Part shown: in pieces, positions 29,152-53,434 of the stretch
Numbering within the stretch: the stretch's first letter is position 1
Layout of the letters: each line of letters begins with the position of its first letter
Assembly: GCF_018687355.1 (NCBI RefSeq)
Contig: NZ_CP061288.1
Coordinates: 1,560,144 to 1,624,143, forward strand
Source: Polynucleobacter sp. VK25
GTDB taxonomy: Bacteria; Pseudomonadota; Gammaproteobacteria; Burkholderiales; Burkholderiaceae
Reading direction: 5' to 3'
DNA length: 64,000 bases
Notes under the pieces: generated by a model
Databases searched by the model: none
What the model was told of the DNA's origin: nothing
What the model saw: the letters and a program-made list of their open reading frames with translations, nothing else
Made by a program: the position numbers and the translations under genes

Positions 29152-29185
29152 TAGTGGGCCCATCTGGACTTAGCCCTTCAACAAA
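29152..29185 (-). repeat. tRNA remnant 1 (decayed 3' end of the CAU tRNA)
   Basis: On the plus strand TAGTGGGCCCATCTGGACTT matches the complement of the intact tRNA 3' end (CCA, acceptor, start of T-arm) at 17 of 20 positions; similarity then fades. It sits right of a hairpin terminator in the same arrangement as the other six copies. Taken as the left boundary of the island. Confidence 0.6.
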
Positions 29186-29198
29186 AACCTACTTGATA

Positions 29199-30296
29199 TT
29201 ATTTTTTAAGCGTCGATAAAAACTGCTTGATTGATTTGTTTTGAACTTCATTTTCATTTGGTGTTGCACCTGCTCCTGATAAATGGCCCATAGGCATCAC
29301 ATCATTAATGGCAACATACTTCACATTAGGAATATATTTTGCAGATTCTTTAGCATCAGATTCTGGATTTAATAAGTCCCCGGTACCCGCGAGAATAAGC
29401 GTCCTTGCTTTAATAGATTTCAAAGCAGCAATCGTATCTCCATTGAAACCTTTTGTTTGTCCAATGTCATGACGGTCATAAGCACGTGACTGCCAAATCC
29501 AATCGTTTGCATCCATGCGCTTCCAAGAAGCATCCTGAAGCTTATTCAGAAATCCTATTTCTGCCTCAGGCGTATTGAATTGTTGATTCTGATAAGCCGG
29601 TGTTCTGACAATCACTCCACTCAACCATCCTGCCCACAAGCGCATTCCCTTCTCAACTGGCTTGTCATATTTCCCGCCCTGGTATGCTGGGTCAGTCATG
29701 ATGCTCTGTCTAAGCATCTCAAGTACTCCGGTAGTCCAAGCATGTGTTTTTGCCAGCGGAATAATGGGAACAACCGACTGCATTGCATCAGGATAAGAAA
29801 CGGCCCATTGCAAAGCCTGCATACCCCCCATGGAGGCGCCTACCACTGTCACCAATTTAGTAATTCCAAAGTGCTCTCTTACTAAGCGGTATTGACTATT
29901 GACCATGTCCCGGATATTGAATTCAGGAAAATTTACATTTGCCTGTGTTTGACTATTTGAAGGAGAGGTTGTTAATCCATTGCCTATTGCGTCAGTACAA
30001 ATGACAAAGTACTTATCGGTATCCAATGCTTTGCCCGGGCCAATGAGGTAATCAATTCGGTGATGATTCCCACCAATCGCTGTCACCATCAAAATAGCGT
30101 TTGATTTATCTGCATTCAGAGTTCCCTGCGTTGTGTAGGAAATTTTAAAATTTTCGATTGTGGAGCCATTTTCAAGAGGAAAGTTTCCCTCTGTATAAGA
30201 TTGATGAACCGGATCCGTATCTTTATGGGCAAATACACTGGTAGAGCAACATGCCAGCGCTAAACATGCGCTAAGAAAATGTAATTTGATTTTCAT
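29199..30296 (-). CDS. Exported MetX-like alpha/beta hydrolase
   Basis: A 365-residue alpha/beta-hydrolase related to homoserine O-acetyltransferase. The nucleophile is Ser155 in VVGASMGGMQALQWA, the acid Asp in LAGTGDLLNPESD (near 306) and the His in PMGHLSGAG (near 340); IGGNHHRIDYLIGPGKALDT and CTDAIGNGLTTSP are MetX-like. Unlike metabolic MetX it begins with a signal peptide (ACCSTSVFAHKD), so it should act in the periplasm, and a role in methionine synthesis is unlikely. A GGAGG lies three bases before the ATG. It is the left-most gene of the island. Confidence 0.85.
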   Translation of the reverse strand: MKIKLHFLSACLALACCSTSVFAHKDTDPVHQSYTEGNFPLENGSTIENFKISYTTQGTLNADKSNAILMVTAIGGNHHRIDYLIGPGKALDTDKYFVICTDAIGNGLTTSPSNSQTQANVNFPEFNIRDMVNSQYRLVREHFGITKLVTVVGASMGGMQALQWAVSYPDAMQSVVPIIPLAKTHAWTTGVLEMLRQSIMTDPAYQGGKYDKPVEKGMRLWAGWLSGVIVRTPAYQNQQFNTPEAEIGFLNKLQDASWKRMDANDWIWQSRAYDRHDIGQTKGFNGDTIAALKSIKARTLILAGTGDLLNPESDAKESAKYIPNVKYVAINDVMPMGHLSGAGATPNENEVQNKSIKQFLSTLKK

Positions 30297-30360
30297 AAGC
30301 CTCCTTTTTGTTATGGAAATATCTTACAGCACAGTTACAAAGTCTGCCCCCTAAAAAAAT

Positions 30361-30383
30361 AAAACCACCCTTGGGTGGCTTTA
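30361..30383 (-). terminator. Terminator behind the Bug receptor gene of the tcu module
   Basis: Stem AGCCACCC/GGGTGGTT with a two-base loop read on the minus strand, then a T-rich tract (complement of the A-run before 30361). Confidence 0.8.
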
Positions 30384-30401
30384 TTTATCAACGCTATGGG
30401 A

Positions 30402-31385
30402 TTACTCGCCTGTTATCTTCTTCTCTCTAATTAACCTACCCCAAGTGGCAGATTCTTTGGTCATATATTTGGCGAGCTCTTCACGCGAAGTTGGCATTGG
30501 CGTTAGGCCATGATCATTTAACTGACTCACAACATCAGGAGACTTCAATACCTTCACAATCTCGACATTCCAGCGATCCATTATCGGAGCTGGAACTTTA
30601 GAGGATGCAACAAATGCATACCAATTTGTTGCATTAAATCCAGGGAATCCAGATTCAGCAATAGTAGGAACTTTTGGGAGTGACTTCAGTCTCTGTGGGC
30701 CAGTTACCGCCAGAGGAATGAGTTTGCCATTTTCAATATAAGCTTTTGCCGTACTGTAGGTTGAAAAATAAGCAGCCACTCTTTCGCCGAGTAAATCCTG
30801 CATGGCTGGAGCTCCACCCTTGTAAGGGACGTGCACAGTTTCAATGCCAGCCATTTCATCTAACAACTCTCCAGCCAGGTGAGAGGCAGATCCTGGTCCC
30901 GTGGAAGCGTAATCTAATTTTTTTGGATTTTTCTTAGCATAAGCAATGTACTCTGCGAATGTCTTGATGCCAGTACCTGCATTCACTACAAGAATATTGG
31001 GAAAGTTAACCCCCATCGAAATAGGCGAGAGATCTTTAAAAGGATCATATGGCAGCTTCATCATATGCGGCGCAATCGTGAGTGGGCCAACAGAGCCAAA
31101 TAAGATTGTGCTGCCATCTGTAGGCCCAGTTGCTGCAAACTGATGAGCAATATTTCCGCCTGCACCACCCCGGTTATCTACAACCACGTTTGCACCAATG
31201 TTCTCACCAAGTTTTTTTGAGATGATCCGGGCTGCCGTATCTGCAGCTCCACCTGCCGCAAATCCGACAACCATAGTGATCGTCTTTTTAGGCGGGAACT
31301 CTTGAGAATTTGCCGAATAGCTTAGCAAGCCAAATGCAAGACTAAGCAATACATTAAAGATATTTTTCTGTTTCATAGCAATCAT
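30402..31385 (-). CDS. Tripartite tricarboxylate transporter receptor (Bug/TctC family)
   Basis: A 327-residue periplasmic solute receptor of the Bug (TctC) family, which captures carboxylates for a TctA/TctB permease. Signal peptide ends near YSANSQE; the ligand loop VGFAAGGAADTAARII, NIAHQFAATGPTDGS, and PYKGGAPAMQDLLGERV are the family landmarks. It starts five bases after the tcuB stop, so it probably delivers tricarballylate or aconitate to TcuA/TcuB (inference from context). No TctA or TctB gene is in the window. Confidence 0.92.
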   Translation of the reverse strand: MIAMKQKNIFNVLLSLAFGLLSYSANSQEFPPKKTITMVVGFAAGGAADTAARIISKKLGENIGANVVVDNRGGAGGNIAHQFAATGPTDGSTILFGSVGPLTIAPHMMKLPYDPFKDLSPISMGVNFPNILVVNAGTGIKTFAEYIAYAKKNPKKLDYASTGPGSASHLAGELLDEMAGIETVHVPYKGGAPAMQDLLGERVAAYFSTYSTAKAYIENGKLIPLAVTGPQRLKSLPKVPTIAESGFPGFNATNWYAFVASSKVPAPIMDRWNVEIVKVLKSPDVVSQLNDHGLTPMPTSREELAKYMTKESATWGRLIREKKITGE

Positions 31386-31390
31386 TTTTA

Positions 31391-32536
31391 CTATTCTCCA
31401 CTTAAGCCAAGCTTATTGGGTTGGCGTTTTTCAATTGCATTCTTTAAAAGCGCTGCAAGTCTATAGAATCCATGGGCAAATTTCCCATAGGGCATGGTTA
31501 AAAAGAAACCCATCACAAATCCCAAATGGATCGCTAGTAATGCGGGCATCGCACTCGTATCCCGATAAGCCAATAAAGCCAAACCAGAGGCACTAATTAA
31601 AAATAGCAGCACAATAAATGCCCTATCCATTGGCTTTTGCGAGGCATCGCCATGCTCGGAATTTCGTTTGAAATTTAAATATAGCAAACCTGCAGGTCCA
31701 ATTAACAAACCAATACCACCAAGTGTACCCAATATAACGGGCAAACTATTGAGCGCATATGGGGCATGTAAATCTAGCAAATAGTGATACAAAGTAGCTA
31801 CGCTAGTGGCTGCAAAGCAAAGCATAAAGCCGTAGAAGGTAAAGTGATGGAACCGCTTACGCCACAAAGTAAATGCATCATCTTCGTTGTTACAACCCTC
31901 GCCATGACCTCCACCAAGATACTTTAAAGTCAAAGCGTCATGTGTCGCCTCAGCTACTGCAGCGCCGGAGGCAATGCCTGGTGAAATACCGCGCCAGAAA
32001 TTGTGCAGCCCAATCAATAAAGCCAAAATAGAAAAACCAAAAACTGCGCCAAACATGATTGCCAAAGTGTTGTGAGAGAAGATAGCGTAAAAATTTCCCT
32101 TCAGGGGTCCGGCAGTTAAGGAGCCATTTACCGCTAGTGTTAGGAGTAAAAATAAAATGAGTGAAAGGGATGCTGCCATTGAGACAGTCACCCCATTTGT
32201 TTTATATAGAGAACCCAAAGCTCTTGGCCATGCATAAGCAATGTATGTATCTTTGCGAACTTGCGCCATTACCTTCGGAATATTCACTGCAAATTCATGT
32301 GGTGGAGCATATTGGCAAGCATGCAGGCAAGCTCCACAGTTATGGCAAAGATTGGCCATAAAGTTCACGTCAGCAGGCAAAAACTCTATCCTTCTTGTCA
32401 TTGCAGGAAAGACCGCACAAAAGCCCTCGCAATATCGACAAGAATTACAGATGGTCAGCATACGCGCCGCTTCCACTTCTGGCGCATTTGAACCTAAAGC
32501 ACTAGCTTCCAAAATTAAGGCATTAAGTTGCTGCAT
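31391..32536 (-). CDS. tcuB: Tricarballylate utilisation Fe-S/membrane protein TcuB
   Basis: A 381-residue membrane-bound iron-sulfur protein that takes electrons from TcuA and passes them to quinone. N-terminal ferredoxin-like clusters are [11 protein letters not shown] and [12 protein letters not shown]; then there are about six transmembrane segments with histidines suited to haem binding ([20 protein letters not shown]). Order and length agree with TcuB/CobZ-C. It overlaps the tcuA stop by 14 bases and is followed by a Bug receptor. Confidence 0.93.
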
Positions 32537-33956
32537 GAGAATTACCTTTTTGATGTAATGCTGCTTTTGCAGCTTCGCTTCCGGCTACGCGCCCAAATAC
32601 TGTGCCAATCGTCATACCAATTCCTGCGGCGTATCCTTTGCCTAATACATTTCCAGCCATCATTTCTCCGGCTACAAATAAATTCTCGCTGGGTTTATCG
32701 CCAAACCGAACGGCTGCAGTTTCATCAGTCTTTAAACCCAAGTAGGTAAATGTAACGCCGGGTCGAACTGCAAAGCCATAAAAAGGACCTTTATCTATCG
32801 GCAAGGCCCAATGCGTTTTAGGTGGCTCTAGACCTTCGGTGTGACAGTCGTCCATGATCGTATGATCAAAAGTTCCCACTCGGCACGCTGCGTTATAGTC
32901 GCCTATTGTTTTTACTAAGGAGTTTGGATCTAATCCGAGCTTTTGGGCCAACTCCTCCAAAGTATCGGCTTTCTCCCCAGGGAATACTGGCGGCATAAAA
33001 CGACCTAAAACTTTTGAGTCAATAATGGAATACCCAATTTGGCCTGGTTGCTGAGCGACTAATCTTCCCCAGAAAGCATAACGCTTAGGCCAGAAGTCTT
33101 CACCTTCATCTGAAAAACGCCGGGCATTTTTATTAACCACAATTCCAAATGAAACCGCATCGATACGAGTGCAAATACCACCATCATATAAAGGCGCTCG
33201 TGCATCAATCGCAACCATGTGCGCCTGGGTTGGGTCGCTGACGGAATCTGCGCCTAGTGCTATTAATTGCTTGAGCAGAACGCCCTTGTTATATTGCGTA
33301 CCGCGTATTAAAAAGTTGTCGGCCGGAGATTCGCCATATTCATTGACACCCCAGGCCTCTTTTAGCCACTCGCGATTGGACTCAAAACCCCCCGCTGCTA
33401 ACACGCAAGTCTTTGCCTCAATTCGTTCATCGCCTACATAGGCAGCGATAAACTTTCCATCCTGGATTTCTACTGAGTCTACTGGTGAGTTGTAGCGAAT
33501 TTCTACGCCCAACTTCTCAGCACTTCGGTAATACGCATTTACTAACGCTTTACCACCGCCCATAAAAAATGCATTAGTTCGGGATAGATTGAGCGTCCCA
33601 GATAGAGGAGGCTGAAAATGTACTCCATGATGCTTCATCCATTCGCGACATTGAGAAGAGGCGCGTATTACAAATCTTGCCAATTGTTCATCCGTCTTGC
33701 CGCTAGTTACCTTGAGCACATCCTGCCAATATTCTTCTTCAGGATAGGATTCGAGCATGACGTCTTCTGGTTGATCATGCATTGCTCGGATATTACGGGT
33801 ATGCCCTGAATTACCACCTCGCCATTCTTTTGGGGCGGCCTCCAAAACTAGTACGGAGGCCCCAGCCTCAATAGCCGTGAGAGCGGCGCAAAGAGCGGCA
33901 TTACCGCCACCAATGACCAGTACATCGAGTTGATTTTGTTTATTTTGGGAGCTCAT
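32523..33956 (-). CDS. tcuA: FAD-dependent tricarballylate dehydrogenase TcuA
   Basis: A 477-residue flavoprotein that oxidises tricarballylate to cis-aconitate. FAD site [56 protein letters not shown] and the C-terminal [17 protein letters not shown] and [19 protein letters not shown] are typical of the fumarate-reductase-like TcuA family. I start at ATG 33956; an upstream TTG at 33971 is possible. A LysR-type operator palindrome lies 54 bases upstream. Translationally coupled to tcuB. Confidence 0.93.
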
Positions 33957-34009
33957 GCTGGCAGTATCCAATATAACTTTTATATTGATAAGTGCAATAT
34001 TTAATCTAA

Positions 34010-34030
34010 TTATTGCGTATTAAGCAATAA
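34010..34030. promoter_or_regulatory. LysR-type operator upstream of tcuA
   Basis: Perfect palindrome TTATTGC-N7-GCAATAA with the T-N11-A core expected of LysR regulators, in the 97-base gap between the LysR-type gene and tcuA, 54 bases before the tcuA start. The position suits activation of tcuA by that LysR protein. Confidence 0.6.
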
Positions 34031-34053
34031 TAATATCCTACTACCCCCCCTTC

Positions 34054-34938
34054 TCAGACGCTCTTTTGAATCAATTTGAAGAAAGCTTCAGCCGCCGGAG
34101 AAAGACTGGTATTTTTATGGCGCAGCAAAGTAACCTTGCGCTTAACGGCGGGATCTTTTAATGGAATCTTGTGAATATGAGGGCGCTCACCATCATTTAG
34201 TGTTGAAGAAGGCAATATTGCACAACCTACTCCAGCAGCCACTAAATTGATAGCGGTGGCATGATGCCGGACTTCATAGTTTCCGTTGAGATGAATGCCA
34301 TGCTTCGCAAGCTGATAGTCCATTAGCACTCTAGTAGAAGTAAGGCTACTGACCACAATTAAGTCCGCATCACGCATATCCGACCAAGTAAGCAATTTCC
34401 TACTCCTGAGCGGATGGGTATCCTGGCATATAAAGACGAGAGGATCGTCAAATAAAGATGTCTCTATTAAATCGGGATGTTTTTCGCCCTGTAAAGCAAG
34501 CCCAATTTCTGCCTGATGATTGAGAACTGCTTTTCGGACTTCGCTAGAGGTTGCATCAAGTATGCGTATACGATTATCAGGATAAGCATTGGCATATTGC
34601 TGGATAAGCTTAGGAACCATGCTCACTGTTAGGCTTGGTATACACGCAAGACTAAAGCTACCTTTTGCATGCAGCGACATATCTTTAAGATGACTAATCG
34701 CAGATGTCATCTCACCTACGATCGCACGAGCTTGTGGCAAAAACTCGCGACCCACTGCAGTAAGCTCAACATGACGAGTTGTCCTGTCAATTAGCTTGAG
34801 TCCAAGATAAGACTCAAGCTTTTGAATTCGGCGTGTTAGGGCTGTTTGCGTAATGTGCAGTTGATCTGCGGCTTTATTAAAGCCACCGAGCTCTGCTATC
34901 ACTACAAATGCTTGAATGCCATCAAAATCAATTTTCAT
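34054..34938 (-). CDS. LysR-type regulator of the tcu module (TcuR-like)
   Basis: A 294-residue LysR regulator. Winged helix at residues 4-60 (FVVIAELGGFNKAADQLHITQTALTRRIQKLE), then an effector domain with FICQDTHPL and VAAGVGCAILPSS. Effector is unknown but should be a tricarboxylate judging by its neighbours. Unlike the usual divergent layout, it points the same way as tcuA; the palindrome at 34010-34030 in between is its likely site. It follows the Bug gene at 35014 by 75 bases. Confidence 0.88.
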   Translation of the reverse strand: MKIDFDGIQAFVVIAELGGFNKAADQLHITQTALTRRIQKLESYLGLKLIDRTTRHVELTAVGREFLPQARAIVGEMTSAISHLKDMSLHAKGSFSLACIPSLTVSMVPKLIQQYANAYPDNRIRILDATSSEVRKAVLNHQAEIGLALQGEKHPDLIETSLFDDPLVFICQDTHPLRSRKLLTWSDMRDADLIVVSSLTSTRVLMDYQLAKHGIHLNGNYEVRHHATAINLVAAGVGCAILPSSTLNDGERPHIHKIPLKDPAVKRKVTLLRHKNTSLSPAAEAFFKLIQKSV

Positions 34939-35013: not shown

Positions 35014-35970
35014 TTAATCGGCCCCCTTCAAACCTAGGCCTTTAATTATGTCGCCCCACTTTTTAATATCAGCAATAAAGAGCGGGGTAAATTTTTGCCT
35101 ACCAAGCGGTTTTACATCAATCCCATCCATGGTAAATTTTTTAGAAATTTCTGGAGATGTTGATGACTCAACAATAATCGCACTTAACCTATCAAGATCG
35201 GCCTCTGGGGTTCCAGCGGGAGCCAAGAATCCATACCACGGCTCATAATAAAAATTTTTAATGCCAGCCTCTTGAATAGTTGGCACATCCGATAAAACAG
35301 GGGATCGCCTTTGACCGGATGTGCCCAGCGCCCTTACTGTTCCACCCTGAATAAAAGGCAAAGCTGCAGGAATGGTTGTTAGGACAGCCTGAATTTGCCC
35401 TCCTGCTACATCAGCTACTGCTTGCGGCATTCCTTTATAAGGAATATGCGTCAGTTTTATACCCGCGGCAGACTGAAATAGCTCCATTGCCAAGTGCCCA
35501 TTACTACCTATGCCGGCAGAGCCATAATTTAGTTTCCCAGGGTTTGCTTTCGCAAATTCAACGAACTCTTGAAGATTTTTAAATTTCGAGCCTGCTGGAA
35601 TCACTAGCACATTGGGGGTAACGCCAACTGTTGCAATTGGTGCGAAATCTTTCTGTATATTAAAAGCTAAGTTATCAGATAGCGCAGAGCTATACACAAC
35701 TCCCTGATGATGAGCTAACAATGTCAATCCATTGGGCTTGGACTGCGCCACAAGGGTAGTCGCTATATTTCCACCGGCACCTAGCTTATTGTCCACCAAG
35801 ACGGGCATGCCTATTTTTTGGGATATCTGAGCGGCCATTATTCGTGCCACTATATCAACAGAGCCACCCGCGGAAAACGGCACATAAATGGTGATCTGCT
35901 TTGGTTGCGCAAAAACATTAGCGCTCAAAATTAGTAGTAAGAAAAAATAAGAGTAAAAAATTCGTTTCAC
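35014..35970 (-). CDS. Bug/TctC receptor adjoining the aconitase paralogue
   Basis: A 318-residue receptor with a GTG start (AGGA about seven bases upstream) and a Sec signal peptide (YSYFFLLLILSANVFAQ). Loop VPFSAGGSVDIVARIM and PYKGMPQAVADVAGGQIQAV are diagnostic. It begins nine bases after the aconitase stop and is the second receptor of this module, differing clearly from that at 30402, so the two probably bind different acids. Confidence 0.92.
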   Translation of the reverse strand: MKRIFYSYFFLLLILSANVFAQPKQITIYVPFSAGGSVDIVARIMAAQISQKIGMPVLVDNKLGAGGNIATTLVAQSKPNGLTLLAHHQGVVYSSALSDNLAFNIQKDFAPIATVGVTPNVLVIPAGSKFKNLQEFVEFAKANPGKLNYGSAGIGSNGHLAMELFQSAAGIKLTHIPYKGMPQAVADVAGGQIQAVLTTIPAALPFIQGGTVRALGTSGQRRSPVLSDVPTIQEAGIKNFYYEPWYGFLAPAGTPEADLDRLSAIIVESSTSPEISKKFTMDGIDVKPLGRQKFTPLFIADIKKWGDIIKGLGLKGAD

Positions 35971-35979
35971 AGGCTCATC

Positions 35980-38625
35980 CTAAAAAGAATTTGAAGCAGT
36001 TAATTTGTAGGCCAAAAACGGGAGAATGCCGCCACTCTGAAAGTAAGCAAGCTCCTCAAGCCTGAGCGCGCTTATAAAATGACATTCGAATATTTCACCA
36101 TTAACCCTCTCGATTGAAGCTTTGACCAACTCACCGGTTAATGGAGGCGTATCACCCATAGAAATGGTAATCGTTTCAGAGCCATCCAAATTCAGAGACT
36201 TACGCGATTCACCCTGCTTGAAAAGTAATGGCATAACGCCAAAAGCAGCTAGGTTAGACCGATGAATACGCTCATAACTCTCAGCAATCACTGCGGCAAC
36301 ACCTAGCAATCTTGTGCTTCGAGCCGCATCATCTCGGGATGACCCTGTGCCGTAATTTTTACCTGCAATAATAATCAGTGGGGTGCCACATTGTTGATAA
36401 TCGACAGAAGCCTTTAAGATTTCTGTTATTTCCCCGCCAGGAAAGACCTTTGTAAACCCACCCTTCTTTTCAGGGGCTAACTCATTCAATAAATTTGGAT
36501 TTGTAAAAGCACCCCTAAGCATCACATCCCAATGGCCCCTTCTAGCTCCAAAGGTATGGAGTCGCTCCAAAGAAACGCCCAATTTTTGCAAATATTGCCC
36601 AGCAACACTGCTTGGCTGGATTCTTCCAGCAGGAGAAATATCATCAGTCGTAACTCCATCCCCGAGTAACAATAAAATTCGCGCCTTTTCAATTAGCATT
36701 TTTGGCGAAGATGATGCTGAACCTTTAGCAAAAAATGGGGGCTGCTTAACAAAGCCAGAAATATCACCCCAATCATAAATCTTAGAGTTAGAAATCTTCA
36801 ACGCTTCCCATAAGTCTGATCCGTTTTTTAAAGCGACCCTTCTAGAATTAAATAATTCCGGTTTCAGGCACTTTGATAAGACCTCATTAATCTCTTGATT
36901 GCTTGGCCAAACATCAGCCAAGAAGATCTCGGATCCACCAATCTTAGTTATTGGCTCATTTTTCAAATCAGTTGTAATCTTGCCAGCTAAGGCATAGGCA
37001 ATAACAAGCGGAGGTGAGGCTAAATAATTGAACTGTAATTGCTGTTGAACACGACCACTAAAATTACGATTGCCCGATAGCACTGCACAACCAACCAAGC
37101 CATCACTCTCAATAGCATCTTGAGCTGCCGGTAAAAGTGGACCTGAATTTCCGATACAGGCAGTACAGCCAAAGCCACATAACTGGAAACCAAGCTGATC
37201 TAGGAAATTTTGCAGGCCACTTCGCTCAAGATACTCACCCACAACAAGGCTTCCAGGCGCGAAGAGCGTCTTAACCCAAGGTGGAACAGTTAAGCCAAGA
37301 AGAACAGCTTTTTTTGCCAATAGCCCAGCGGCAATCATTAGATGTGGATTCGATGTATTTGTACAACTAGTAATTGCGGCAAGCAATACAGCCCCGTTTG
37401 GGATGCCCGACTTATTTGGATCGGAATTCAAAACATCATGATTAGGAAATGAACTTGGAACTTCAGATAATGATCTCTTTTCTTCAGGCTTTTTGGGGCC
37501 AGAAATGCGAGGCTCAACCTCAGAAAGATTAAATTCAATCACTTGAGAGTATTTAGGTTCGACATTACCGTCACACCACAAAGAGGCTGCTTGAGCATAT
37601 TGCTTAAAAAGACCTTCTTGATCCCGGCCCGTTCCCAATAAATACTCAAGTGTCCGCTCATCCCATGGGAAAAAAGCGCAAGTAGCGCCGTATTCTGGAG
37701 CCATATTTGCTATGGTTGCACGGTCAGGTATCGGAAGACTTGCAGCTCCAGGTCCAAAAAATTCTACGAATTTATTTACCACTCCAACTGACCTCAACAA
37801 TGAAGTAACAGTAAGGACACAGTCTGTGGCTGTTACACCAGCCCCTAATTGCCCAGATAATCGAACACCAATCACCTCTGGCATAGGAATATTCAATGAC
37901 TCCCCTAGAGATGCCCCTAAGGCCTCAATCCCGCCGACCCCCCAGCCGAGTACACCCAAAGAATTGATTGTTGTTGTATGGCTATCTGCACCTATAACCA
38001 ATTCAGGGAAAAGGTTGATAACCTCATCACCTTGCTCCAATACATATGCAGTCGCCAAAGACTCTAAATTAACCTGATGACAAATCCCCGAGTCAGGCGG
38101 AATAATTCTTAAATTTTTAAAAGCATGAGATACCCATTTTAAAAATGAAAATCTCTCAATATTTTGCTCATACTGTTGTCTTGAATTCTCAGTCGCAGCT
38201 AAAGAGTTTCCTGAGCTATTGACAACAATGGAGTGGTCGACCACGAGATCTACTGGAATTTTCGGATTAACTGTCTCGGGATCAACGCCCTTATTGATTG
38301 CAGCTTGGCGCAACGCACAAAGATCCACCAAGACCGGTATGCCCGTGTAGTCTTGCATCAAAACACGAGTGGCATAAATATTTATTGAGGAGCTTTGTTT
38401 ACTAGCTTCCTGCCAATTAGCAAATAGATCAATAGTAGATCTTAACTCTTGCTCGCTTTTGCAGTGGCGAAGATTACTTTCTAAAACAACCCTAAGACAA
38501 AATGGCAATTGAGAAATATCCATTTTTGCATTGAGTCCCCCTAACTTCTCCAAGGCAATAAGTCGATTTTTATTTACTTCTCCAGTAATACCGACCAAAA
38601 AATTTTCGCTAAGCATTGGATGCAT
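35980..38625 (-). CDS. Divergent AcnA-type aconitase paralogue
   Basis: An 881-residue aconitase-superfamily protein. The 4Fe-4S cysteines are intact (Cys421 in ITSCTNTSNP; Cys487 and Cys490 in GFGCTACIGNSGPL), as are IPVDLVVDHS, GADSHTTT and YERIHRSNLAAFG. Two otherwise well conserved AcnA positions differ: TTDH is TTDD (residue 662) and SSRDW is SSRDD (766), and the RGNHEVM region reads RGHWDVM. This suggests a changed substrate. By its place beside tcuA, whose product is cis-aconitate, it likely hydrates that or a related tricarboxylate; a housekeeping aconitase is probably elsewhere. Confidence 0.85.
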   Translation of the reverse strand: MHPMLSENFLVGITGEVNKNRLIALEKLGGLNAKMDISQLPFCLRVVLESNLRHCKSEQELRSTIDLFANWQEASKQSSSINIYATRVLMQDYTGIPVLVDLCALRQAAINKGVDPETVNPKIPVDLVVDHSIVVNSSGNSLAATENSRQQYEQNIERFSFLKWVSHAFKNLRIIPPDSGICHQVNLESLATAYVLEQGDEVINLFPELVIGADSHTTTINSLGVLGWGVGGIEALGASLGESLNIPMPEVIGVRLSGQLGAGVTATDCVLTVTSLLRSVGVVNKFVEFFGPGAASLPIPDRATIANMAPEYGATCAFFPWDERTLEYLLGTGRDQEGLFKQYAQAASLWCDGNVEPKYSQVIEFNLSEVEPRISGPKKPEEKRSLSEVPSSFPNHDVLNSDPNKSGIPNGAVLLAAITSCTNTSNPHLMIAAGLLAKKAVLLGLTVPPWVKTLFAPGSLVVGEYLERSGLQNFLDQLGFQLCGFGCTACIGNSGPLLPAAQDAIESDGLVGCAVLSGNRNFSGRVQQQLQFNYLASPPLVIAYALAGKITTDLKNEPITKIGGSEIFLADVWPSNQEINEVLSKCLKPELFNSRRVALKNGSDLWEALKISNSKIYDWGDISGFVKQPPFFAKGSASSSPKMLIEKARILLLLGDGVTTDDISPAGRIQPSSVAGQYLQKLGVSLERLHTFGARRGHWDVMLRGAFTNPNLLNELAPEKKGGFTKVFPGGEITEILKASVDYQQCGTPLIIIAGKNYGTGSSRDDAARSTRLLGVAAVIAESYERIHRSNLAAFGVMPLLFKQGESRKSLNLDGSETITISMGDTPPLTGELVKASIERVNGEIFECHFISALRLEELAYFQSGGILPFLAYKLTASNSF

Positions 38626-44656: not shown

Positions 44657-44663
44657 TAGCTTT

Positions 44664-45874: not shown

Positions 45875-45953
45875 TTTATGTAGTTTTCATTACATCCTGG
45901 ACTATGCCCTCACTCTTACAAAGATTGGGGATTATGATGGCTCGTCATTGTTA

Positions 45954-46907
45954 TTAATCGATCTTAATATTTTTATCTTGTATTAGCTTTGACCATTTCT
46001 GTTGATCAGCCTTAATTAGCTCTGCAAACTCTTCTGATGTCCCGCCAGATGGCTCTATTCCACGATCTAACATTTCCTTGCGTACCTGGGGAGTTTTTAA
46101 AACTCTATCTATATCAGCGCTGATCTTTGAAACAATATTACTTGGAGTCTTTGATGGCGCAAAAATACCAAACCAACCAACTGCGCTATACCCAGGTATG
46201 CCAGACTCAGAGATGGTTGGCAACCCTGGAACAGATTGCGATCTTTTGGGGCTGGTAACGGCTAGAGCCTTTAAATTTCCCGCCTGAATTTGTGGCATTA
46301 CTGTTTGAGCAGGGGAAAACATTACATTGATATGTCCACCCAATAAATCAGACAGGGCTGGACCTGAGCCCTTATAGGGAACATGGAGCATCTCCACGCC
46401 GGCCATCGATTTAAATAATTCCCCTGATAAATGCGATACAGATCCTGAACCAGAGGAACCAAAACGAATTAACTGGGGATTTGATTTTGCGGCTGCGATT
46501 AGTTGCTGCACCGTATTCACTTTTAAAGATGGGCTTACAGTTAATACATAAGGAGATGCGGATACCAAACTGACTGGTACTAATTGATTGACGAATTGAT
46601 CCGGCAATGCTGGAGTCGCAATTAACCAGGTATAACCATCAGCAGGTGATCGAATCACTGCATCCGCTCCAACAGCTCCAGAGGCACCTGGTCGATTTTC
46701 AATGACGATGGATTGCTTCCAAATCTCAGTTAGAGGCGGAACAATAATACGCATGAGGGTATCTGTCCCTCCGCCTGGAGGATAAGGAACAACTAAACGA
46801 ATGCTTTTAGAGGGGAAATTATCTGCTTGTGCAATCGCCAAACTTGTACCAACAAGATATACGCACAAGCAAATTAAATATTTCTGTAGATTCGCTTTTA
46901 AGAACAT
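45954..46907 (-). CDS. Bug/TctC receptor, divergent from the SMP-30 gene
   Basis: A 317-residue receptor; signal peptide near residues 1-27 (ICLCVYLVGTSLAIAQA). Loop VVPYPPGGGTDTLMRII, MLHVPYKGSGPALSDLLGG and GVEMLHVPYKG are classical. GGGGTGATGA precedes the ATG. It is read away from the SMP-30 gene, with 103 AT-rich bases between. Confidence 0.92.
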   Translation of the reverse strand: MFLKANLQKYLICLCVYLVGTSLAIAQADNFPSKSIRLVVPYPPGGGTDTLMRIIVPPLTEIWKQSIVIENRPGASGAVGADAVIRSPADGYTWLIATPALPDQFVNQLVPVSLVSASPYVLTVSPSLKVNTVQQLIAAAKSNPQLIRFGSSGSGSVSHLSGELFKSMAGVEMLHVPYKGSGPALSDLLGGHINVMFSPAQTVMPQIQAGNLKALAVTSPKRSQSVPGLPTISESGIPGYSAVGWFGIFAPSKTPSNIVSKISADIDRVLKTPQVRKEMLDRGIEPSGGTSEEFAELIKADQQKWSKLIQDKNIKID

Positions 46908-47010
46908 TCATCACCCCTAAATCTATTAACAAAGCTTTAGCTAGAAAGTTGTTTTTAATAAGTTTTTAATATACAGTAAAAAAATAATAGCAATAATTCG
47001 GAGACGCAAA

Positions 47011-47922
47011 ATGACAGTAAATTCGATGACACGACCTATTGATATGGTCGGGTCAGTGATTGATGTGGTTGATTCAAATCACGACATCCTCGGAGAGTCA
47101 ATTATCTGGGATAAAGATAAAGGCCTCCTGTGGTGGGTAGATGGAATCGGAATGTTCATCTATCGTCTTGATCCAAGTACAGGTCAAAAACAAAGCTGGA
47201 AATTGGATGAAGAGATTGGCTCGATTGGACTAAGGCAAAAAGGCGGCCTTGTGGTGGGTATGAGATCAGGCTTATATTTTTTCAATCCTGACAACGGACA
47301 ACTCAGCGAGATTACTAAACCAGACTCTGATCGAACAGGCAACCGATTCAACGACGGCAAAGTAGATCGCCATGGACGTTTTTGGACCGGTACTGTTCAA
47401 GCAAGCGCCTACACACCACGCGGCAGACTCTGGAGGCTAGACGCTGACTTAAAGGCAAACCTCATTATGGAGGGTATTACCTGCATCAATGGAATTAGCT
47501 TTAGTCCAGATAATCGCTTGATGTACTTTACTGACTCATTCAGCTGTCGCATTGAGGTTTTTGATTATGACTCTACTGATGGCGCTATTTATAACAGACG
47601 TCATTTCGCAGATGTACCCCTAGGTAGGGGAATTTGTGACGGCTCAACGGTAGATGCTGATGGATGTTTTTGGAGCGCTAATATGGATGGTTGGTGCGTA
47701 ACTCGCTATGACCCGCGCGGGCGTATTGATACCGTCATTAATCTACCCACTAGAAGGGTTTCAAGCCTGTGTTTCGGCGGACCGAATTTGGATACGCTCT
47801 TTATCACTACAGCACGCCGAAGAATGCAAGATAAAGAATTAGCTCAACAACCTTTAGCAGGATGTGTATTAGCAGTGAATCCTGGTATTCAAGGATTGCC
47901 CGAACCTGAATTTCTCGGCTAG
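47011..47922 (+). CDS. SMP-30/gluconolactonase family protein
   Basis: A 303-residue six-bladed propeller lactonase. The calcium/metal ligands are in ILGESIIWD (Glu), INGISFSPDN (Asn) and CDGSTVDADGCFWSA (Asp); NRFNDGKVDRHGRFWTGT is the family hallmark. It would hydrolyse a sugar-acid lactone to the open acid. GGAG lies eight bases before the ATG. Followed after 33 bases by a Bug gene and then a crotonase gene. Confidence 0.9.
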   Translation: MTVNSMTRPIDMVGSVIDVVDSNHDILGESIIWDKDKGLLWWVDGIGMFIYRLDPSTGQKQSWKLDEEIGSIGLRQKGGLVVGMRSGLYFFNPDNGQLSEITKPDSDRTGNRFNDGKVDRHGRFWTGTVQASAYTPRGRLWRLDADLKANLIMEGITCINGISFSPDNRLMYFTDSFSCRIEVFDYDSTDGAIYNRRHFADVPLGRGICDGSTVDADGCFWSANMDGWCVTRYDPRGRIDTVINLPTRRVSSLCFGGPNLDTLFITTARRRMQDKELAQQPLAGCVLAVNPGIQGLPEPEFLG

Positions 47923-47955
47923 ACCCACTAAAACCCAATCTTTTATGCAGGGGAA

Positions 47956-48918
47956 ATGATGAAAAAAATTCTTGTGATTATTGTTTGGCATTTAATTTCC
48001 CTGAACTACGCTACTGCCCAAACATTTCCAGATAAGCCAGTAAAAATAGTAGTGCCCTATACCCCAGGGGGAGCAACTGATACTTTAGCCAGAAGCATTG
48101 CAAATCAGTTAAGCACGAAATGGAATAAGCCTGTGCTTGTTGATAACCGCGGTGGTGCTTCAGGAATGATTGGCGCTGAGTTTGTAGCAAAAGCACCGCC
48201 AGATGGATATACGCTCATGATCTCAGACAGTGCGCCATACGTTATCCTGCCGAACTTTTATCCTAACTTGAATTACGCCCCGCTAAAAGACTTTGCCCCT
48301 ATCACTGTAATTGCTCGTCAAGCTCCTATTATTGTTATATCCAATAAAATTCCAGCAAACAATATTAAAGAGCTGATTGCCTATTTAAAGTCCCATCCGG
48401 ATACTCCATATGCCTCTTTGGGTAATGGATCTTATCCTCATGTAGCAATGGAAGAATTTCAAAGTCAAACTGGCACAAAGCTGCTGCATGTTCCTTACAA
48501 AGGAACTGCGCAAATCATTACCGACATGATTGGGGGTCAGGTAGATCTTTATGTGGGAACTCTTGGCGCATTTGAGCAACATGAGAAAAGTGGCAAAGTG
48601 AAAATACTTGCAACTGCTACAGAAAAGCGTTTGCCATTTAGACCAGAGCTGGTAACCGTATCAGAATCAGGTATTCCCGGGTTTTCAGTTAGTGTTTGGT
48701 TTGGAATGGTTGCAACTGCAGGAACACCAACCCCAGTGCTCAATAGAATTTATCAGGACGTAGCTGAAATCCTAAAAAATAATACATTTATTAGTGAAGT
48801 GTTAACACCTCAAGCTTTAATACCAGGCGGCGACTCAAGAGCTGAGTTTAGTGCGCTAATGAAAGCAGATACAGCGCGATGGGGCGAAATCATCAAATCA
48901 ACTGGAATTAAGCCATAA
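47956..48918 (+). CDS. Bug/TctC receptor between the lactonase and crotonase genes
   Basis: A 320-residue receptor with signal peptide ending NYATAQTFP. Loop VVPYTPGGATDTLARSI and LLHVPYKGTAQIITDMIGGQ are diagnostic. Two consecutive ATG codons (47956, 47959) follow an AGGGG; the second has better spacing. It belongs to the plus-strand unit SMP-30, Bug, crotonase. Confidence 0.92.
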   Translation: MMKKILVIIVWHLISLNYATAQTFPDKPVKIVVPYTPGGATDTLARSIANQLSTKWNKPVLVDNRGGASGMIGAEFVAKAPPDGYTLMISDSAPYVILPNFYPNLNYAPLKDFAPITVIARQAPIIVISNKIPANNIKELIAYLKSHPDTPYASLGNGSYPHVAMEEFQSQTGTKLLHVPYKGTAQIITDMIGGQVDLYVGTLGAFEQHEKSGKVKILATATEKRLPFRPELVTVSESGIPGFSVSVWFGMVATAGTPTPVLNRIYQDVAEILKNNTFISEVLTPQALIPGGDSRAEFSALMKADTARWGEIIKSTGIKP

Positions 48919-48945
48919 CCACCAATAGAAAGACAGAAAGAAACC

Positions 48946-49710
48946 ATGACTAAATTAAGTGAGTACGCTGATAAATATCAAACCATCAAAATGAAGCGTA
49001 AGGATGGAATTATTGAGGTTAAATTACATACAAATGATGGCCCCCTGCATTGGAGTCTATTGCCTCATGGAGAACTTGAAAAAGCTTTTTATGAAATTGG
49101 TCATGATCCAGAAAACGAGGTAATGATCCTTACTGGTTCGGGCGATGCTTTTAGCGGTCCTCCCTGCCCACCAAATGGCCACAACCATGTCAGCCATCCA
49201 GTCACCGCAATGGAGTGGGACAAAATATATTGGGAGGGAAAGCATCTACTAATGAATCTTTTGAATATAGAGATCCCGATTATCGGAGCCATTAATGGTC
49301 CAGCGTTGCGTCATTCAGAAATTCCACTGCTCTCCGATATTGTGATTGCTAGCGATAACACCACGATTCAAGATTCTGCGCATTTTGCCGGCGGATTAGT
49401 TCCTGGTGATGGCGTACATATTGTTTTTCCGCATCTAATGGGGGCTAATCGCGGTAGATATTTTCTTCTAACTGGTCAAACTCTTAATGCGCAAGAAGCA
49501 AAAGATGTTGGCTTAATTAGCGAAATATTACCAGCAGATAAATTAATGGATCGAGCTTATGAACATGCCCACTTTTTAATGCAACGCTCTCCCCTACTTA
49601 GAAGATATGCAAGAACGCTTCTAACTCAAGAACTCAAACAAAAAATGCACAACCTACTTGGTTACGGATTAGCGCTTGAAGGACTAGCAGCCTCCCATAA
49701 ATCGATCTAA
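48946..49710 (+). CDS. Enoyl-CoA hydratase/isomerase family protein
   Basis: A 254-residue crotonase-fold protein. The oxyanion-hole segments are ILTGSGDAFSGP and GPALRHSEIPLLSDIVIAS, followed by FAGGLVPGDGVHIVFP; the usual Gly-Asn pairs are changed, and the GGG of standard hydratases is missing. It therefore may be a C-C bond hydrolase or isomerase (6-oxocamphor-hydrolase-like) rather than a hydratase. Last gene of the SMP-30/Bug unit. Confidence 0.82.
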   Translation: MTKLSEYADKYQTIKMKRKDGIIEVKLHTNDGPLHWSLLPHGELEKAFYEIGHDPENEVMILTGSGDAFSGPPCPPNGHNHVSHPVTAMEWDKIYWEGKHLLMNLLNIEIPIIGAINGPALRHSEIPLLSDIVIASDNTTIQDSAHFAGGLVPGDGVHIVFPHLMGANRGRYFLLTGQTLNAQEAKDVGLISEILPADKLMDRAYEHAHFLMQRSPLLRRYARTLLTQELKQKMHNLLGYGLALEGLAASHKSI

Positions 49711-49765: not shown

Positions 49766-49831
49766 GCTGGCGGATCCAAAGGATTGTGAGTGCCCTGCTC
49801 TAACCAACTGAGCTATGGGCCGGCCGCCAGC
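49766..49831 (-). repeat. tRNA remnant 6: T-arm-less copy inside an 8-bp inverted repeat
   Basis: Unlike the other remnants, this one keeps the 5' two thirds of the tRNA. From about 49775 to 49821, 44 of 47 bases match the intact gene (variable loop, anticodon arm, D-arm, 5' acceptor strand), while the T-arm is missing. The anticodon triplet reads CAC in place of CAU and one anticodon-stem pair is broken. The whole is bracketed by GCTGGCGG (49766-49773) and CCGCCAGC (49824-49831). Probably a pseudo-tRNA; a structured RNA is possible. Confidence 0.8.
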
Positions 49832-49935: not shown

Positions 49936-51006
49936 TTACTTCAAAGCCTCTAAGACTGCTTTTGCCATTGAGGCAGTATTGCCTTTGCCATTAATATCAC
50001 CGGTTCTAGCATTCGGATTTTTTAGGGCTATTGTGGTTGCCTCTGACATTGATCTTGCCATCGCCACAGCCTCAGGGATATTTCTACTATGTCCGAGCCA
50101 ATCGAACATCATGCGGGTTGATTCAATCATAGAGTATGGGTTAGCAATACCCTTACCAGCAATATCTGGGGCCGATCCATGAGTAGCTTGCGCCATGACT
50201 ACATCGCCATCGCCAATACACAACCCAGGAGCCATTCCTAAACCCCCAACAAGGCCAGCAGCCTCATCTGACAAGATATCGCCAAACATATTCGTAGTAA
50301 CAATCACGTCAAAGTTTTGCGGGTCACGTACTAAGCGCATTGCCATCGTGTCAACAATTACATCATCAACCAGCACATCCGGATATTCGGGTGCTAATTT
50401 TTTGCATTCCTCAACAAACATCCCGCAACCCAACTTAAAGACGGTATCTTTATGTACATAAGTTAAATGCTTCTTGCGTTGACGCGCTAACTCATATGCT
50501 GCTTGCGCTACTCGACGACTCCCCGTTCTTGTAATCACACGCATGGACAGCGTCATTTCATCGCTAGGACGAAACTCTGCATTTCCAACTAGCATATTCC
50601 GGTCTGGCTGAAAGCCCTCATTGTTTTCACGAACAATAATCAAATCAATATCATCACGAAGACAGCCTATATCTGGATACGAGCGTGTTGGCCTTACGTT
50701 TGCAAATAAATTAAATTGCTTACGCAAAATAGGATGGGGATTAATTGCATTCGCTTGCTTTGGATAAGCGCGATGTCCAATGGGACCCAAGATCCAGCCA
50801 TCTAAAGTATGCAATGTTTCTAAAGTTTCTGGTGGCAGAGTATGGCCATGGGTATCAAGTGCACGACGCCCGACTGGTAATGGTACCCACTCAATATCAA
50901 CCTGGTGAATCTTCGCTGCTGCTTTAGCAACCTCTACCGCAACTGGCACAATCTCGTGACCAATATCATCACCCTCCAGAATTCCTACACGTAATTTTTT
51001 TTTCAT
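49936..51006 (-). CDS. Isocitrate/isopropylmalate-family decarboxylating dehydrogenase
   Basis: A 356-residue NAD-dependent beta-decarboxylating hydroxyacid dehydrogenase. [20 protein letters not shown] is the N-terminal signature; [15 protein letters not shown] aligns with the substrate-specificity loop (REN-x-EG) and [36 protein letters not shown] residues supply the metal Asp and the Lys/Tyr region. It differs from LeuB and Icd in the loop, so tartrate or another malate analogue is likely. It starts three bases after the Bug stop (translational coupling). Confidence 0.88.
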
Positions 51007-51009
51007 ACC

Positions 51010-51978
51010 CTAATCTTCCAGTTGTATATTTCTTGCTTTGGCTAATGCAGTCCACCGCTTCACTTCATTCTTAATAAATTGGCTAAATTGTTCAGGAGAC
51101 ATTGGCATTGGTTCAACTGCTTCAATCGATAATTTCTCACGCATCTCAGGTAGCTTCAGTGTAGCAACCTGAGTTTCATTTAAACGTTTAACGATATCTA
51201 CAGGAATTCCTGCGGGACCAACGGTGCCATACCACTGCATAGCATCAAAGCCCTTAAAACCCAACTCCTCCATCGTCGGCACATCTTTCAATACAGGGCT
51301 ACGTTTAGGTCCAGTCACTGCCAATGCACGCATCCTACCAGACTGAATATACTGAAGTGCAGCCGCTAAACCAGGAAACATAGTTTGAGTCTGCCCCCCA
51401 AGTAAATCATTAAATGCAGGAGCGATACCTCGATAAGGGATATGAAGAATGAAGAGGCCAGTTTCTTGTTTAAATAATTCCATTGTCATATGGGTCAGAG
51501 ACCCCTGACCAGCAGTTCCATAACTTAACTTGCCAGGGTTCTTTCGTGCATAGTCTATAAATTCCTTCATGTTTTTAACGGGAACTTGGCTATTCACAAC
51601 CAAAACATTCGGGGTAGCGCCAATCATTCCAATTGGCGTGAAGTCTTTAATGGGGTCATAGGGAACTTTTCTGGTTGCTGGATTCGTACCATGCGTAGCG
51701 ACATACCCCTGCATTAGAGTGTATCCATCTGGCGCGGCCCTCATAGTGGACTGAGAGGCAATCACTCCGCCACCACCACTTTGGTTCTCGACTACAAAAG
51801 TTTGTCCAAGAAAACGACCCCAACGCTCAGTAACCACCCGCGCAATCATGTCATTACCACCACCAGCGGCTACCGGGACAATGTAGCGTATTGGTTTTGT
51901 GGGGAATGACTGTGCCCATGAAGGCAAAGGAAGCAGCAAAGAGGCTGTGGCCCCAATGAACTGACGTCGATTAGTCAT
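51010..51978 (-). CDS. Bug/TctC receptor with a twin-arginine-like signal
   Basis: A 322-residue receptor. The N-terminus MTNRRQFIGATASLLLPLPSWAQ has an RRQFIG twin-arginine motif, unlike the Sec signals of the other six receptors here. Loop VPVAAGGGNDMIARVV and HIPYRGIAPAFNDLLGG identify the family. ATG at 51978 is chosen because GGGAG lies six bases upstream; the ATG at 51984 touches that site. Coupled to the dehydrogenase gene. Confidence 0.9.
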   Translation of the reverse strand: MTNRRQFIGATASLLLPLPSWAQSFPTKPIRYIVPVAAGGGNDMIARVVTERWGRFLGQTFVVENQSGGGGVIASQSTMRAAPDGYTLMQGYVATHGTNPATRKVPYDPIKDFTPIGMIGATPNVLVVNSQVPVKNMKEFIDYARKNPGKLSYGTAGQGSLTHMTMELFKQETGLFILHIPYRGIAPAFNDLLGGQTQTMFPGLAAALQYIQSGRMRALAVTGPKRSPVLKDVPTMEELGFKGFDAMQWYGTVGPAGIPVDIVKRLNETQVATLKLPEMREKLSIEAVEPMPMSPEQFSQFIKNEVKRWTALAKARNIQLED

Positions 51979-52121
51979 GCGCATCTCCCTTAGGAAAAAT
52001 TAAGCAATCAGAATAACTGAAATCTCTACAAAAGTTGAGCAACCCTAAAATTGGGTATATTGATTTTCTTATAATTTCACCATAGTAGACAAGTGTTACT
52101 TAAAGCAACACTCAAAAGACA

Positions 52122-52149: not shown

Positions 52150-52156
52150 GCTTTTC

Positions 52157-52184
52157 TGGTGGGCCCACCAGGACTTGAACCTGG
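52157..52184 (-). repeat. tRNA remnant 7: exact 28-base copy of the tRNA 3' end
   Basis: The 28 bases are identical to 53358-53385, covering CCA, the acceptor 3' strand and the T-arm, and then the match stops abruptly at 52185. This looks like a recent attachment-site copy. It lies 26 bases left of the stop of the ChaA-like gene. Confidence 0.92.
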
Positions 52185-52210
52185 CACGGTAAAAACCGTT
52201 TGCTAAAAAA

Positions 52211-53209
52211 TTAAGGGGTAATAGTTAGCCTTATATAGGCTAAAAAAATCACAATATGCATCATCCCCTGAGAAAAAGTAGCTCTTCCGGTTGAGATAGT
52301 CATGATGCTGATAATAAAAGTTAACAACAAAAATACTTGAGATTTTGCATCCAGACCCAGCGTTAACGTGATGCCGGTCAATATTGAAATAAGGGCGGCT
52401 ACAGGGATTGTTAGTCCGACACTTGCTAAGCCTGACCCTAAAGCCAAATTAAAACTGTTCTGCATCTTATTGTTGGATGCTTGGCGAATGGCCGAAATAG
52501 ATTCTGGCAAAAGAACAAGGCCGGCAATCATGACGCCAACAAATTCCTTTGGTGCGCCAATTTTATCGACAAAATTCTCGATATAAGGAGCCAATGCTTT
52601 AGAAAGCAGAACGACGGCGGTCAATGAAAAAATAATCGCAATGCCACTATAAATTGCTGCCTTTAAGGTAGGCTTCTCATGATTACTTCGCTCCAAGGCG
52701 GTGCCAAATATTCTAGGCGGTAAAAAAAGATCTCTATGTTTGATGGTTTGCGCGTAAACATAAACAGCATACAGAACAAAGCAAGCTATTGCGGCTCCGC
52801 GCATCTGGTCAGCATTGTAATGCGGGCCAGGCATGGAGGTTGTATACATTGGCAAAACGAAAACCAAAACCGAAGTAGTGATCAACATTCCGAGAGTGAT
52901 ATTTGTTCCGTCGACCTTAAAAATTGTCTCGTTATATTTGAGTGCGCCAATAATTAAACAAACCCCAACCAAACCATTACAAACAATCATGATGGTTGCA
53001 AAAATTGAATCTCGAACAATTGCTTCGCTTCCTGGGGATTTGGAAAGCAAAATACTTGAAATTAAGGCGACCTCAATAATTGTTACAGCAAGGGCCAATA
53101 AAAGGGAGCCATAGGGCTGACCAACCCTTAATGCAATTACCTCAGCAAAATGCACCGAAACCAAAATACAAACTACCAAAGCGGCTATAAGAATAAGAGG
53201 TATTAACAT
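52211..53209 (-). CDS. ChaA-like cation/proton antiporter
   Basis: A 332-residue polytopic protein of the CaCA superfamily with about ten helices. The two exchanger repeats are visible: LALAVTIIEVALISSIL (acidic Glu in helix 2) and IAGLVLLPESISAIRQA with a following GSGLASVGLTIPVA. It resembles ChaA/y4hA, which exports sodium, potassium or calcium against protons. It is the only gene of the newest island module, between the exact remnant 7 and the intact tRNA, and has no link to the Bug cassettes. Confidence 0.85.
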   Translation of the reverse strand: MLIPLILIAALVVCILVSVHFAEVIALRVGQPYGSLLLALAVTIIEVALISSILLSKSPGSEAIVRDSIFATIMIVCNGLVGVCLIIGALKYNETIFKVDGTNITLGMLITTSVLVFVLPMYTTSMPGPHYNADQMRGAAIACFVLYAVYVYAQTIKHRDLFLPPRIFGTALERSNHEKPTLKAAIYSGIAIIFSLTAVVLLSKALAPYIENFVDKIGAPKEFVGVMIAGLVLLPESISAIRQASNNKMQNSFNLALGSGLASVGLTIPVAALISILTGITLTLGLDAKSQVFLLLTFIISIMTISTGRATFSQGMMHIVIFLAYIRLTITP

Positions 53210-53325
53210 TGTGAATTATTATGCCATTCAAATTACTAATGGGTTAATGCCAACCACTCATATAACAAACAACAAGCAAGGCAATCAACGTTCTTAAGAA
53301 AAACTTCAACTGAACTGAAAAGACT

Positions 53326-53356
53326 AAACCCTCACCATTGCTGATGAGGGTTTTTT
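53326..53356 (-). terminator. Terminator of the rpoD-tRNA transcript
   Basis: Stem AAACCCTCA/TGAGGGTTT just downstream of the tRNA CCA, with T-richness on both sides. Confidence 0.85.
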
Positions 53357-53357
53357 C

Positions 53358-53434
53358 TGGTGGGCCCACCAGGACTTGAACCTGGGACCAAAGGATTATG
53401 AGTCCTCTGCTCTAACCAACTGAGCTATGGGCCC
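53358..53434 (-). tRNA. tRNA with CAU anticodon, Ile2 type
   Basis: Complete 77-nt tRNA with encoded CCA. Acceptor GGGCCCA pairs with TGGGCCC; D-arm GCTCAGTTGGTTAGAGC; anticodon loop CTCATAA; T-arm CCAGGTTCAAGTCCTGG. The CAU anticodon allows elongator Met or Ile2; the CAU loop followed by UCCUU, with the GGTC variable loop, is closer to Ile2 (which needs lysidine modification by TilS). It starts 12 bases after the rpoD stop and is the anchor of the mosaic island. Seven remnants of it lie to the left. Confidence 0.93.

What the first reader, a model, noticed from the sequence alone, without database searches (positions are those of the whole stretch)
29152..53434. A 24-kb mosaic island built of modules separated by seven remnants of one tRNA
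Pieces of the CAU tRNA at 53358-53434 recur at 29152, 38814, 41321, 42781, 45831, 49766 and 52157, all in the same orientation and mostly beside a hairpin terminator. Identity ranges from 28 of 28 for the copy nearest the intact gene to about 17 of 20 for the farthest. The segments between carry one to seven genes each, mostly Bug receptors with catabolic enzymes. This fits stepwise accretion at a single tRNA site in which each insertion rebuilds the tRNA end and pushes the former one away. No integrase is visible, so the mechanism is not the usual prophage-like one; natural transformation and recombination at the repeats is an alternative.
Basis: partly seen in the sequence, partly recalled or inferred. 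Interest (0 to 1): 0.88.

Follow-up and report, generated by a model that had tools for sequence, protein, structure and literature searches.

The report
Gene cassettes stacked at one tRNA
A freshwater bacterium carries a 24-kb stack of mostly nutrient-use genes whose modules are marked by broken pieces of one tRNA gene, and its relatives show that such stacks grow when a DNA-inserting enzyme cuts in that tRNA's anticodon loop, some of the inserted elements bringing a complete spare tRNA of their own.

Summary
The island is real (window 29152-53358; genus Polynucleobacter by its relatives). Five of the seven claimed remnants exceed chance on their own. The one at 29152 is supported by position: in relative G035 the same gene is followed there by the intact tRNA and rpoD. 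41321 stays unproven. Relatives add two borders (about 30.3 and 34.95 kb).

The mechanism looks site-specific after all. In 60 relatives and 12 further stretches, element ends and tRNA halves join at one 7-bp core, TTATGAG (the anticodon loop), in all four products of a single crossover: attB, attL, attR and an attP-like tandem joint. A tyrosine recombinase gene lies within 12 kb of the right end X in 18 of 21 copies. The window's own genome holds a relative of that recombinase at tRNA-Lys, with a 46-nt 3' fragment.

The unusual part is in the relatives: X-type elements split the tRNA and carry a complete spare, usually with a group I intron in the very loop that is the target. Of 27 units bounded by a left end, 3 contain a detected recombinase. 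Whether the window's modules restored the tRNA by a 3' half or by a whole copy is undecided.

The parts
53358..53434 (-). intact tRNA(CAU), target site (attB); TTATGAG core at 53396-53402
   Evidence: read as tRNA-Ile2 by recall, ARAGORN says Met
53447..56026 (-). rpoD, right flank
28400..29110 (+). SDR gene, left flank; in G035 it ends beside the intact tRNA
29152..29171 (-). tRNA remnant, weak alone, supported by position
29199..30296 (-). module: alpha/beta hydrolase
   Evidence: in G135 directly beside the 2HADH module
30402..34938 (-). module: Bug receptor, Fer4-like protein (sub-threshold match), FAD oxidoreductase, LysR regulator
   Evidence: block ends at 34939 in G036, starts at 30401 in G004
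35014..38625 (-). module: Bug receptor, aconitase family protein
38814..38858 (-). tRNA 3'-half remnant up to the anticodon loop
38853..38940 (+). remnant of the element left end (LE)
   Evidence: E 9.7e-17 in the window alone
39033..41272 (+). module: Bug receptor, CoA-transferase III
41321..41350 (-). claimed remnant beside a hairpin, unproven
   Evidence: E 6.9
41379..42647 (-). module: amidohydrolase
   Evidence: present alone in G004
42781..42829 (-). tRNA 3'-half remnant
   Evidence: G135 shows tRNA end plus first LE bases here
42818..45641 (.). module: 2-hydroxyacid dehydrogenase (+), class II aldolase (-), Bug receptor (-)
   Evidence: whole block 42787-45667 in G135
45831..45875 (-). 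tRNA 3'-half remnant
45873..45913 (-). remnant of a group I intron 3' end
   Evidence: E 6.4e-6
45954..49710 (.). module: Bug receptor (-), SMP-30/gluconolactonase, Bug receptor, enoyl-CoA hydratase (+)
49766..49821 (-). whole tRNA copy with internal deletion
49936..51984 (-). module: isocitrate/isopropylmalate dehydrogenase, Bug receptor
52157..52187 (-). tRNA 3'-end remnant, least decayed
52211..53209 (-). module: Na/Ca exchanger

Best explanation
The island grew by repeated site-specific insertion into the anticodon loop of one tRNA(CAU) gene beside rpoD. A tyrosine recombinase exchanges strands at the 7-bp loop TTATGAG. A unit begins with a noncoding left end (LE), carries cargo, and ends with a terminator and a fresh tRNA part: either the 3' half, or a complete tRNA followed by a noncoding right end (X). 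The former tRNA 3' half stays behind, joined to LE, so remnants mark module borders and point one way. SHOWN in relatives: the junction types, tandem X|LE joints, the empty-site arrangement, recombinase-X linkage, complete tRNA copies beside X at ectopic places. INFERRED: that the window's modules came this way; that units without recombinase were moved in trans or have lost theirs; that the strand exchange is at this core (no experiment).
For: X profile hits in 73 stretches: 38, of which 29 run through TTATGAG into a tRNA 5' half and 9 into LE. LE hits: 34, left neighbours a tRNA 3' half 13 plus 3 likely, X 9, RE2 5, other 4. Motif counts: 3' half|5' half 41, 3' half|LE 13, X|5' half 26, X|LE 9, RE2|LE 8 (patterns set after seeing the sequences). 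Remnants left of the functional tRNA: 44 in 27 of 60 relatives, 41 of them 3' halves, 37 starting at the terminal base; 14 end at base 45 (loop edge) and 11 at base 40 (intron joint) (correcting 56, which held functional copies); 0 in one shuffle per locus. LE in the window at 38853. G035 empty-site arrangement; whole block in G135. Block ends within 250 bp of a remnant, LE or X: 54 of 530, against 10 of 518 ORF ends inside blocks. Recombinase within 12 kb of X: 18 of 21 near-complete copies of at least 87% identity. Related element at tRNA-Lys in the window's genome with a 46-nt 3' fragment.
Against: The window has no recombinase and no X, and only one border keeps a recognisable LE. About 90% of block ends in relatives lie near no detectable anchor. 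33 of 60 relatives show no scoring remnant in the 20 kb fetched. The gradient of decay is rough. Comparisons are between species, so gain and loss are not separated; G035 could be a deletion. The LE and X profiles were built from this site's own copies.
Confidence: 0.8

Rival explanations
1. Modules are assembled by natural transformation: donor DNA anchors in rpoD and the tRNA/terminator repeats, and the other side joins by short or no homology, leaving tRNA pieces of varied length.
For: Window modules recur in other orders in other species; several window remnants have ragged ends (52157 ends at base 31, 49766 lacks the T-arm); the window lacks a recombinase; about 90% of block ends lie near no anchor.
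Against: The exact joints X|TTATGAG|LE and 3' half|TTATGAG|LE with conserved noncoding ends beside unrelated cargo; recombinase linkage to X.
Confidence: 0.15
2. Within the site-specific model, the window's modules restored the tRNA in the classical way: each unit carried only the tRNA 3' half, as at tRNA-Lys, and X was never there.
For: tRNA-Lys elements with a recombinase of the same family show 45-46-nt 3' fragments in 4 of 6 stretches (the other two: no fragment, and no tRNA found); 36 of 60 relatives have no X near rpoD; the window has none.
Against: 49766 is a whole-tRNA copy and 45831 keeps an intron end, as expected from X-type units; X could have been lost by recombination between the two 5' halves (inference, not tested).
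Confidence: 0.5
3. The repeats are chance or conserved terminator-tRNA motifs without a history of insertion.
For: 29152 and 41321 are at noise level alone.
Against: Five others far exceed shuffled controls; G035 has an intact tRNA at the orthologous point.
Confidence: 0.02

Closest known systems
Genomic islands in tRNA genes with anticodon-loop crossover (Islander, PMC4383910; abstract and passages seen)
   Same: Tyrosine recombinase, intact tRNA at one end, displaced 3' fragment at the other, anticodon-centred site, tandem arrays known
   Different: The window has many remnants and no recombinase (Islander demands one per tandem member and lists 4 tandems of three or more, so counts are not like for like); X-type elements of relatives carry a whole tRNA and their attP-like joint shares only the 7-bp loop with the target
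Flexible islands of freshwater Methylophilaceae (PMC10872708, passages seen): an additive island with repeats of the last 20 bases of tRNA-Lys, and a tycheposon at tRNA-Met(CAT)
   Same: Freshwater betaproteobacteria, recurrent tRNA-end repeats, tRNA(CAT) border, variable cargo
   Different: The passages seen describe no att joints, spare tRNA, intron or conserved element ends
Tycheposons of Prochlorococcus (original paper not seen; from PMC10872708 passages and recall)
   Same: Cargo elements at tRNA genes with a tyrosine recombinase
   Different: No recombinase in the window; recombinases and ends not compared
Group I introns in bacterial tRNA anticodon loops (PMC4090602 passage; the Azoarcus tRNA-Ile case is recalled)
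   Same: Intron in the anticodon loop, RF00028 matches
   Different: Here the intron sits in the spare tRNA of mobile elements, in the loop that is their target
Intron as a shield against integration into archaeal tRNA genes (Randau and Soll, as told in PMC4090602)
   Same: Intron interrupts attB
   Different: There a possible host trait, protein-spliced; here a self-splicing type on the element's tRNA
Integron cassette arrays (recalled)
   Same: Stacked cargo units at one recombination site, most without recombinase
   Different: Site is a tRNA loop; no integron integrase found

Membership tests
tRNA-site genomic island (Islander definition) | intact tRNA gene plus displaced end fragment, matching orientation | tested here: met
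tRNA-site genomic island (Islander definition) | integrase gene within the island | tested here: not met
   no PF00589 match and no relative of the X-linked recombinase in the island; 3 of 27 LE-bounded units have one (L069, L071, L075)
tRNA-site genomic island (Islander definition) | attP carries a tRNA fragment that restores the gene | tested here: inconclusive
   not so for the X|LE joints of relatives; so for tRNA-Lys relatives in 4 of 6 stretches; undecided for the window
Tycheposon | tRNA gene at the border | tested here: met
Tycheposon | tyrosine recombinase carried by the element | tested here: not met
   window:
Tycheposon | recombinase and ends of the Prochlorococcus kind | not tested
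   no reference sequence fetched
Integron cassette array | integron integrase | tested here: not met
   the two small recombinases scanned reach 42 and 51.1 bits against cut-off 265 (TIGR02249); attC sites not tested
Group I intron (RF00028) | match above the gathering score | tested here: met
   relatives: L059, L066, L068 twice among 6 loci, L136; L072 only 33.9 of 50 bits; in the window an end remnant only

The most novel reading that the evidence does not exclude
A tRNA-based cassette system: mobile elements target the anticodon loop of a presumably essential tRNA-Ile2(CAU), destroy it, and each brings a complete spare tRNA gene. Many spares hold a self-splicing group I intron exactly at the integration point, which removes the target and shields the working tRNA from the next insertion, so later elements land at the X|TTATGAG joint and build tandem arrays. 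Units without recombinase, down to about 750 bp with ends, tRNA and intron and no reading frame above about 100 codons, are moved in trans by related elements.
Probability: 0.4. Interest if true: 0.8.

Novelty: new variant of a known kind. Interest (0 to 1): 0.62.

Why it matters
It would explain how small freshwater genomes gather catabolic genes piece by piece at a fixed place without a visible integrase, and gives borders that can be read in any strain. If the X-type reading holds, elements break an essential tRNA and bring a working one, and a self-splicing intron would have a selectable role: it hides the target site. That makes an old idea, introns as protection of tRNA genes from integration, testable in culturable bacteria.

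Tried and rejected
Chance similarity: rejected for five remnants by shuffles, not for 41321. X as a tiny element of its own: less likely, since X is joined to LE at one core in 9 places. The left-flank genes as part of the island: they looked shuffled at first, but most genes of window 552-29110 have orthologues in G035 in order, with gaps, so the border at 29152 stands. Cargo travelling on phages or plasmids: the X-linked recombinase has no match in 50,697 phage records and only 6 plasmid records below 60% identity. X outside the genus: 12 of 249 family genomes, all in the same genus. An empty ectopic site for L135: similarity in relatives starts about 105 bases beyond X, so no clean empty site was found. 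My first remnant count (56) included functional copies; recounted as 44. In print: searches (listings) and passages of five papers (PMC10872708, PMC5644125, PMC4383910, PMC8371274, PMC4090602) showed no description of these elements; most subscription papers are not held, among them the Polynucleobacter island paper PMC5244307.
Full report
CHECK OF THE OBSERVATION. The tRNA at 53358-53434 lies on the minus strand. A local alignment scan finds strong partial copies at 38814, 42781, 45831, 49772 and 52157 (scores 24.9-39.9; shuffled maximum 15.7 in ten sequences), while 29154 (13.6) and 41328 (10 to 11) are at noise level. A profile made only from 26 remnants of relatives repeats this for four of the five and misses 49772, whose T-arm is deleted. 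Three remnants run from the 3' terminus to the anticodon loop (bases 1-46, 1-48, 1-46). The tRNA is the only copy in the genome above 80% identity; the other tRNA hits are Phe, Arg and Ile(GAT) at 72-79%.

RELATIVES. 149 of 151 genus genomes match the rpoD-tRNA anchor. I fetched 20 kb at this site for 60 of the 150 relatives, chosen for closed or long contigs. Most genes of window 552-29110 have orthologues in order, with gaps, in G035 (L086), but the genes of 29199-53209 have none to two among the 60 stretches. In G035 the SDR gene that ends at window 29110 is followed by a terminator, the intact tRNA and rpoD: the arrangement expected of an empty site. G024 keeps a remnant at the same point (score 18.8). 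G036 is collinear with 27623-34939 and then reaches the tRNA; G004 has 30401-34128, 49934-51024 and 41398-42658 in that new order, the first after a scoring remnant; G135 has 29199-30303 next to 42787-45667, with a tRNA end and first LE bases visible only by alignment. G098 shares only 182 bases at the start of the hydrolase gene, just before terminator and tRNA.

ELEMENT ENDS. Remnants that end at base 45 are followed by a conserved noncoding left end, LE. About two fifths of the relatives (24 of 60) have a noncoding right end, X, between the tRNA and a second tRNA 5' half beside rpoD. Profile searches find 38 X in 73 stretches; 29 pass through TTATGAG into a tRNA 5' half and 9 into LE. LE (34 hits) is preceded by a tRNA 3' half (13, and 3 likely), X (9), a second right end RE2 (5) or something else (4). 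With intact tRNAs these are attB, attL, attR and attP-like joints at one 7-bp core. The window keeps LE at 38853 (E 9.7e-17) and no X.

RECOMBINASE. Elements in L071 and L075 carry a 448-residue protein matching phage integrases (PHROG 1, E 1.1e-31; no Pfam or NCBIfam match) and a small tyrosine recombinase (PF00589, E 1.7e-26 in L071). Relatives at E 1e-20 occur in 79 of 151 genomes, X in 62 and LE in 59 of 151 at E 0.001. The window's genome holds no close copy but a 44% relative elsewhere, beside tRNA-Lys with an identical 46-nt 3' fragment about 8 kb away. Of 27 LE-bounded units, 3 contain a recombinase detected by five queries; some units, like the window's, span several modules, and distant recombinases could be missed.

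SPARE tRNA AND INTRON. X-type elements hold a complete tRNA left of X; at ectopic places in G098 and G058 this is a second intact tRNA(CAU) beside the one at rpoD. Their right flanks there still resemble part of the 5' half, so the ectopic targets are tRNA-like; an empty ectopic site was not found. In 19 of 24 sites with X near rpoD the tRNA holds a first-type group I intron in the loop, against 2 of 36 without X (Fisher p 3.4e-9, relatedness not controlled; L095, counted without, has another intron-like insert). Rfam confirms RF00028 in L059, L066, L068 (twice) and L136, weakly in L072. The window's 45831 remnant ends in such an intron. In the 9 X|LE joints the tRNA before X is interrupted by an intron or a similar insert.

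CONCLUSION. The general kind, tRNA-loop islands in tandem, is known. New to me are the joint grammar with conserved ends shared by unrelated cargo, the spare tRNA with an intron at the target, and units of about 150-750 bp. The shield and trans-mobilisation ideas are inference.

Noticed in passing
L190 9590-18025 (window's own genome, G000:C1:1394589-1403024): A related integrative element at tRNA-Lys(TTT): 448-type recombinase, small tyrosine recombinase and an identical 46-nt 3' fragment.
   Followed up: partly
L083 13994-19600; L089 14100-19590: Another element of about 5.5 kb at the same tRNA, with two tyrosine recombinases (406 and 222 residues in L083) and a DUF6641-like protein; it leaves a tRNA 5' half at rpoD.
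   Followed up: partly
L072, L076, L078, L081, L085, L090, L098 beside rpoD: A reading frame that looks like the end of a PIN-domain toxin (my reading, no family search) lies between rpoD and the tRNA.
   Followed up: no
L136, reverse complement 16946-17693: A unit of about 750 bp with LE, tRNA, group I intron and X; longest stop-to-stop stretch 101 codons.
   Followed up: partly
L054 19369-19557: A remnant, a weak LE and the intact tRNA within about 190 bp: an empty-looking unit.
   Followed up: no
L072 15710-15927; L095: A second, divergent group I-like insert in the same anticodon loop (33.9 bits in L072, below the gathering score).
   Followed up: partly
L095, L069, L075 cargo: Cargo includes an AbiEii-type toxin gene (L095), a Fic protein (L069) and what looks like a restriction-modification set (L075, by reading only).
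   Followed up: partly
window 29199-53209: Seven Bug/TctC receptor genes within 24 kb, each beside different catabolic enzymes.
   Followed up: no
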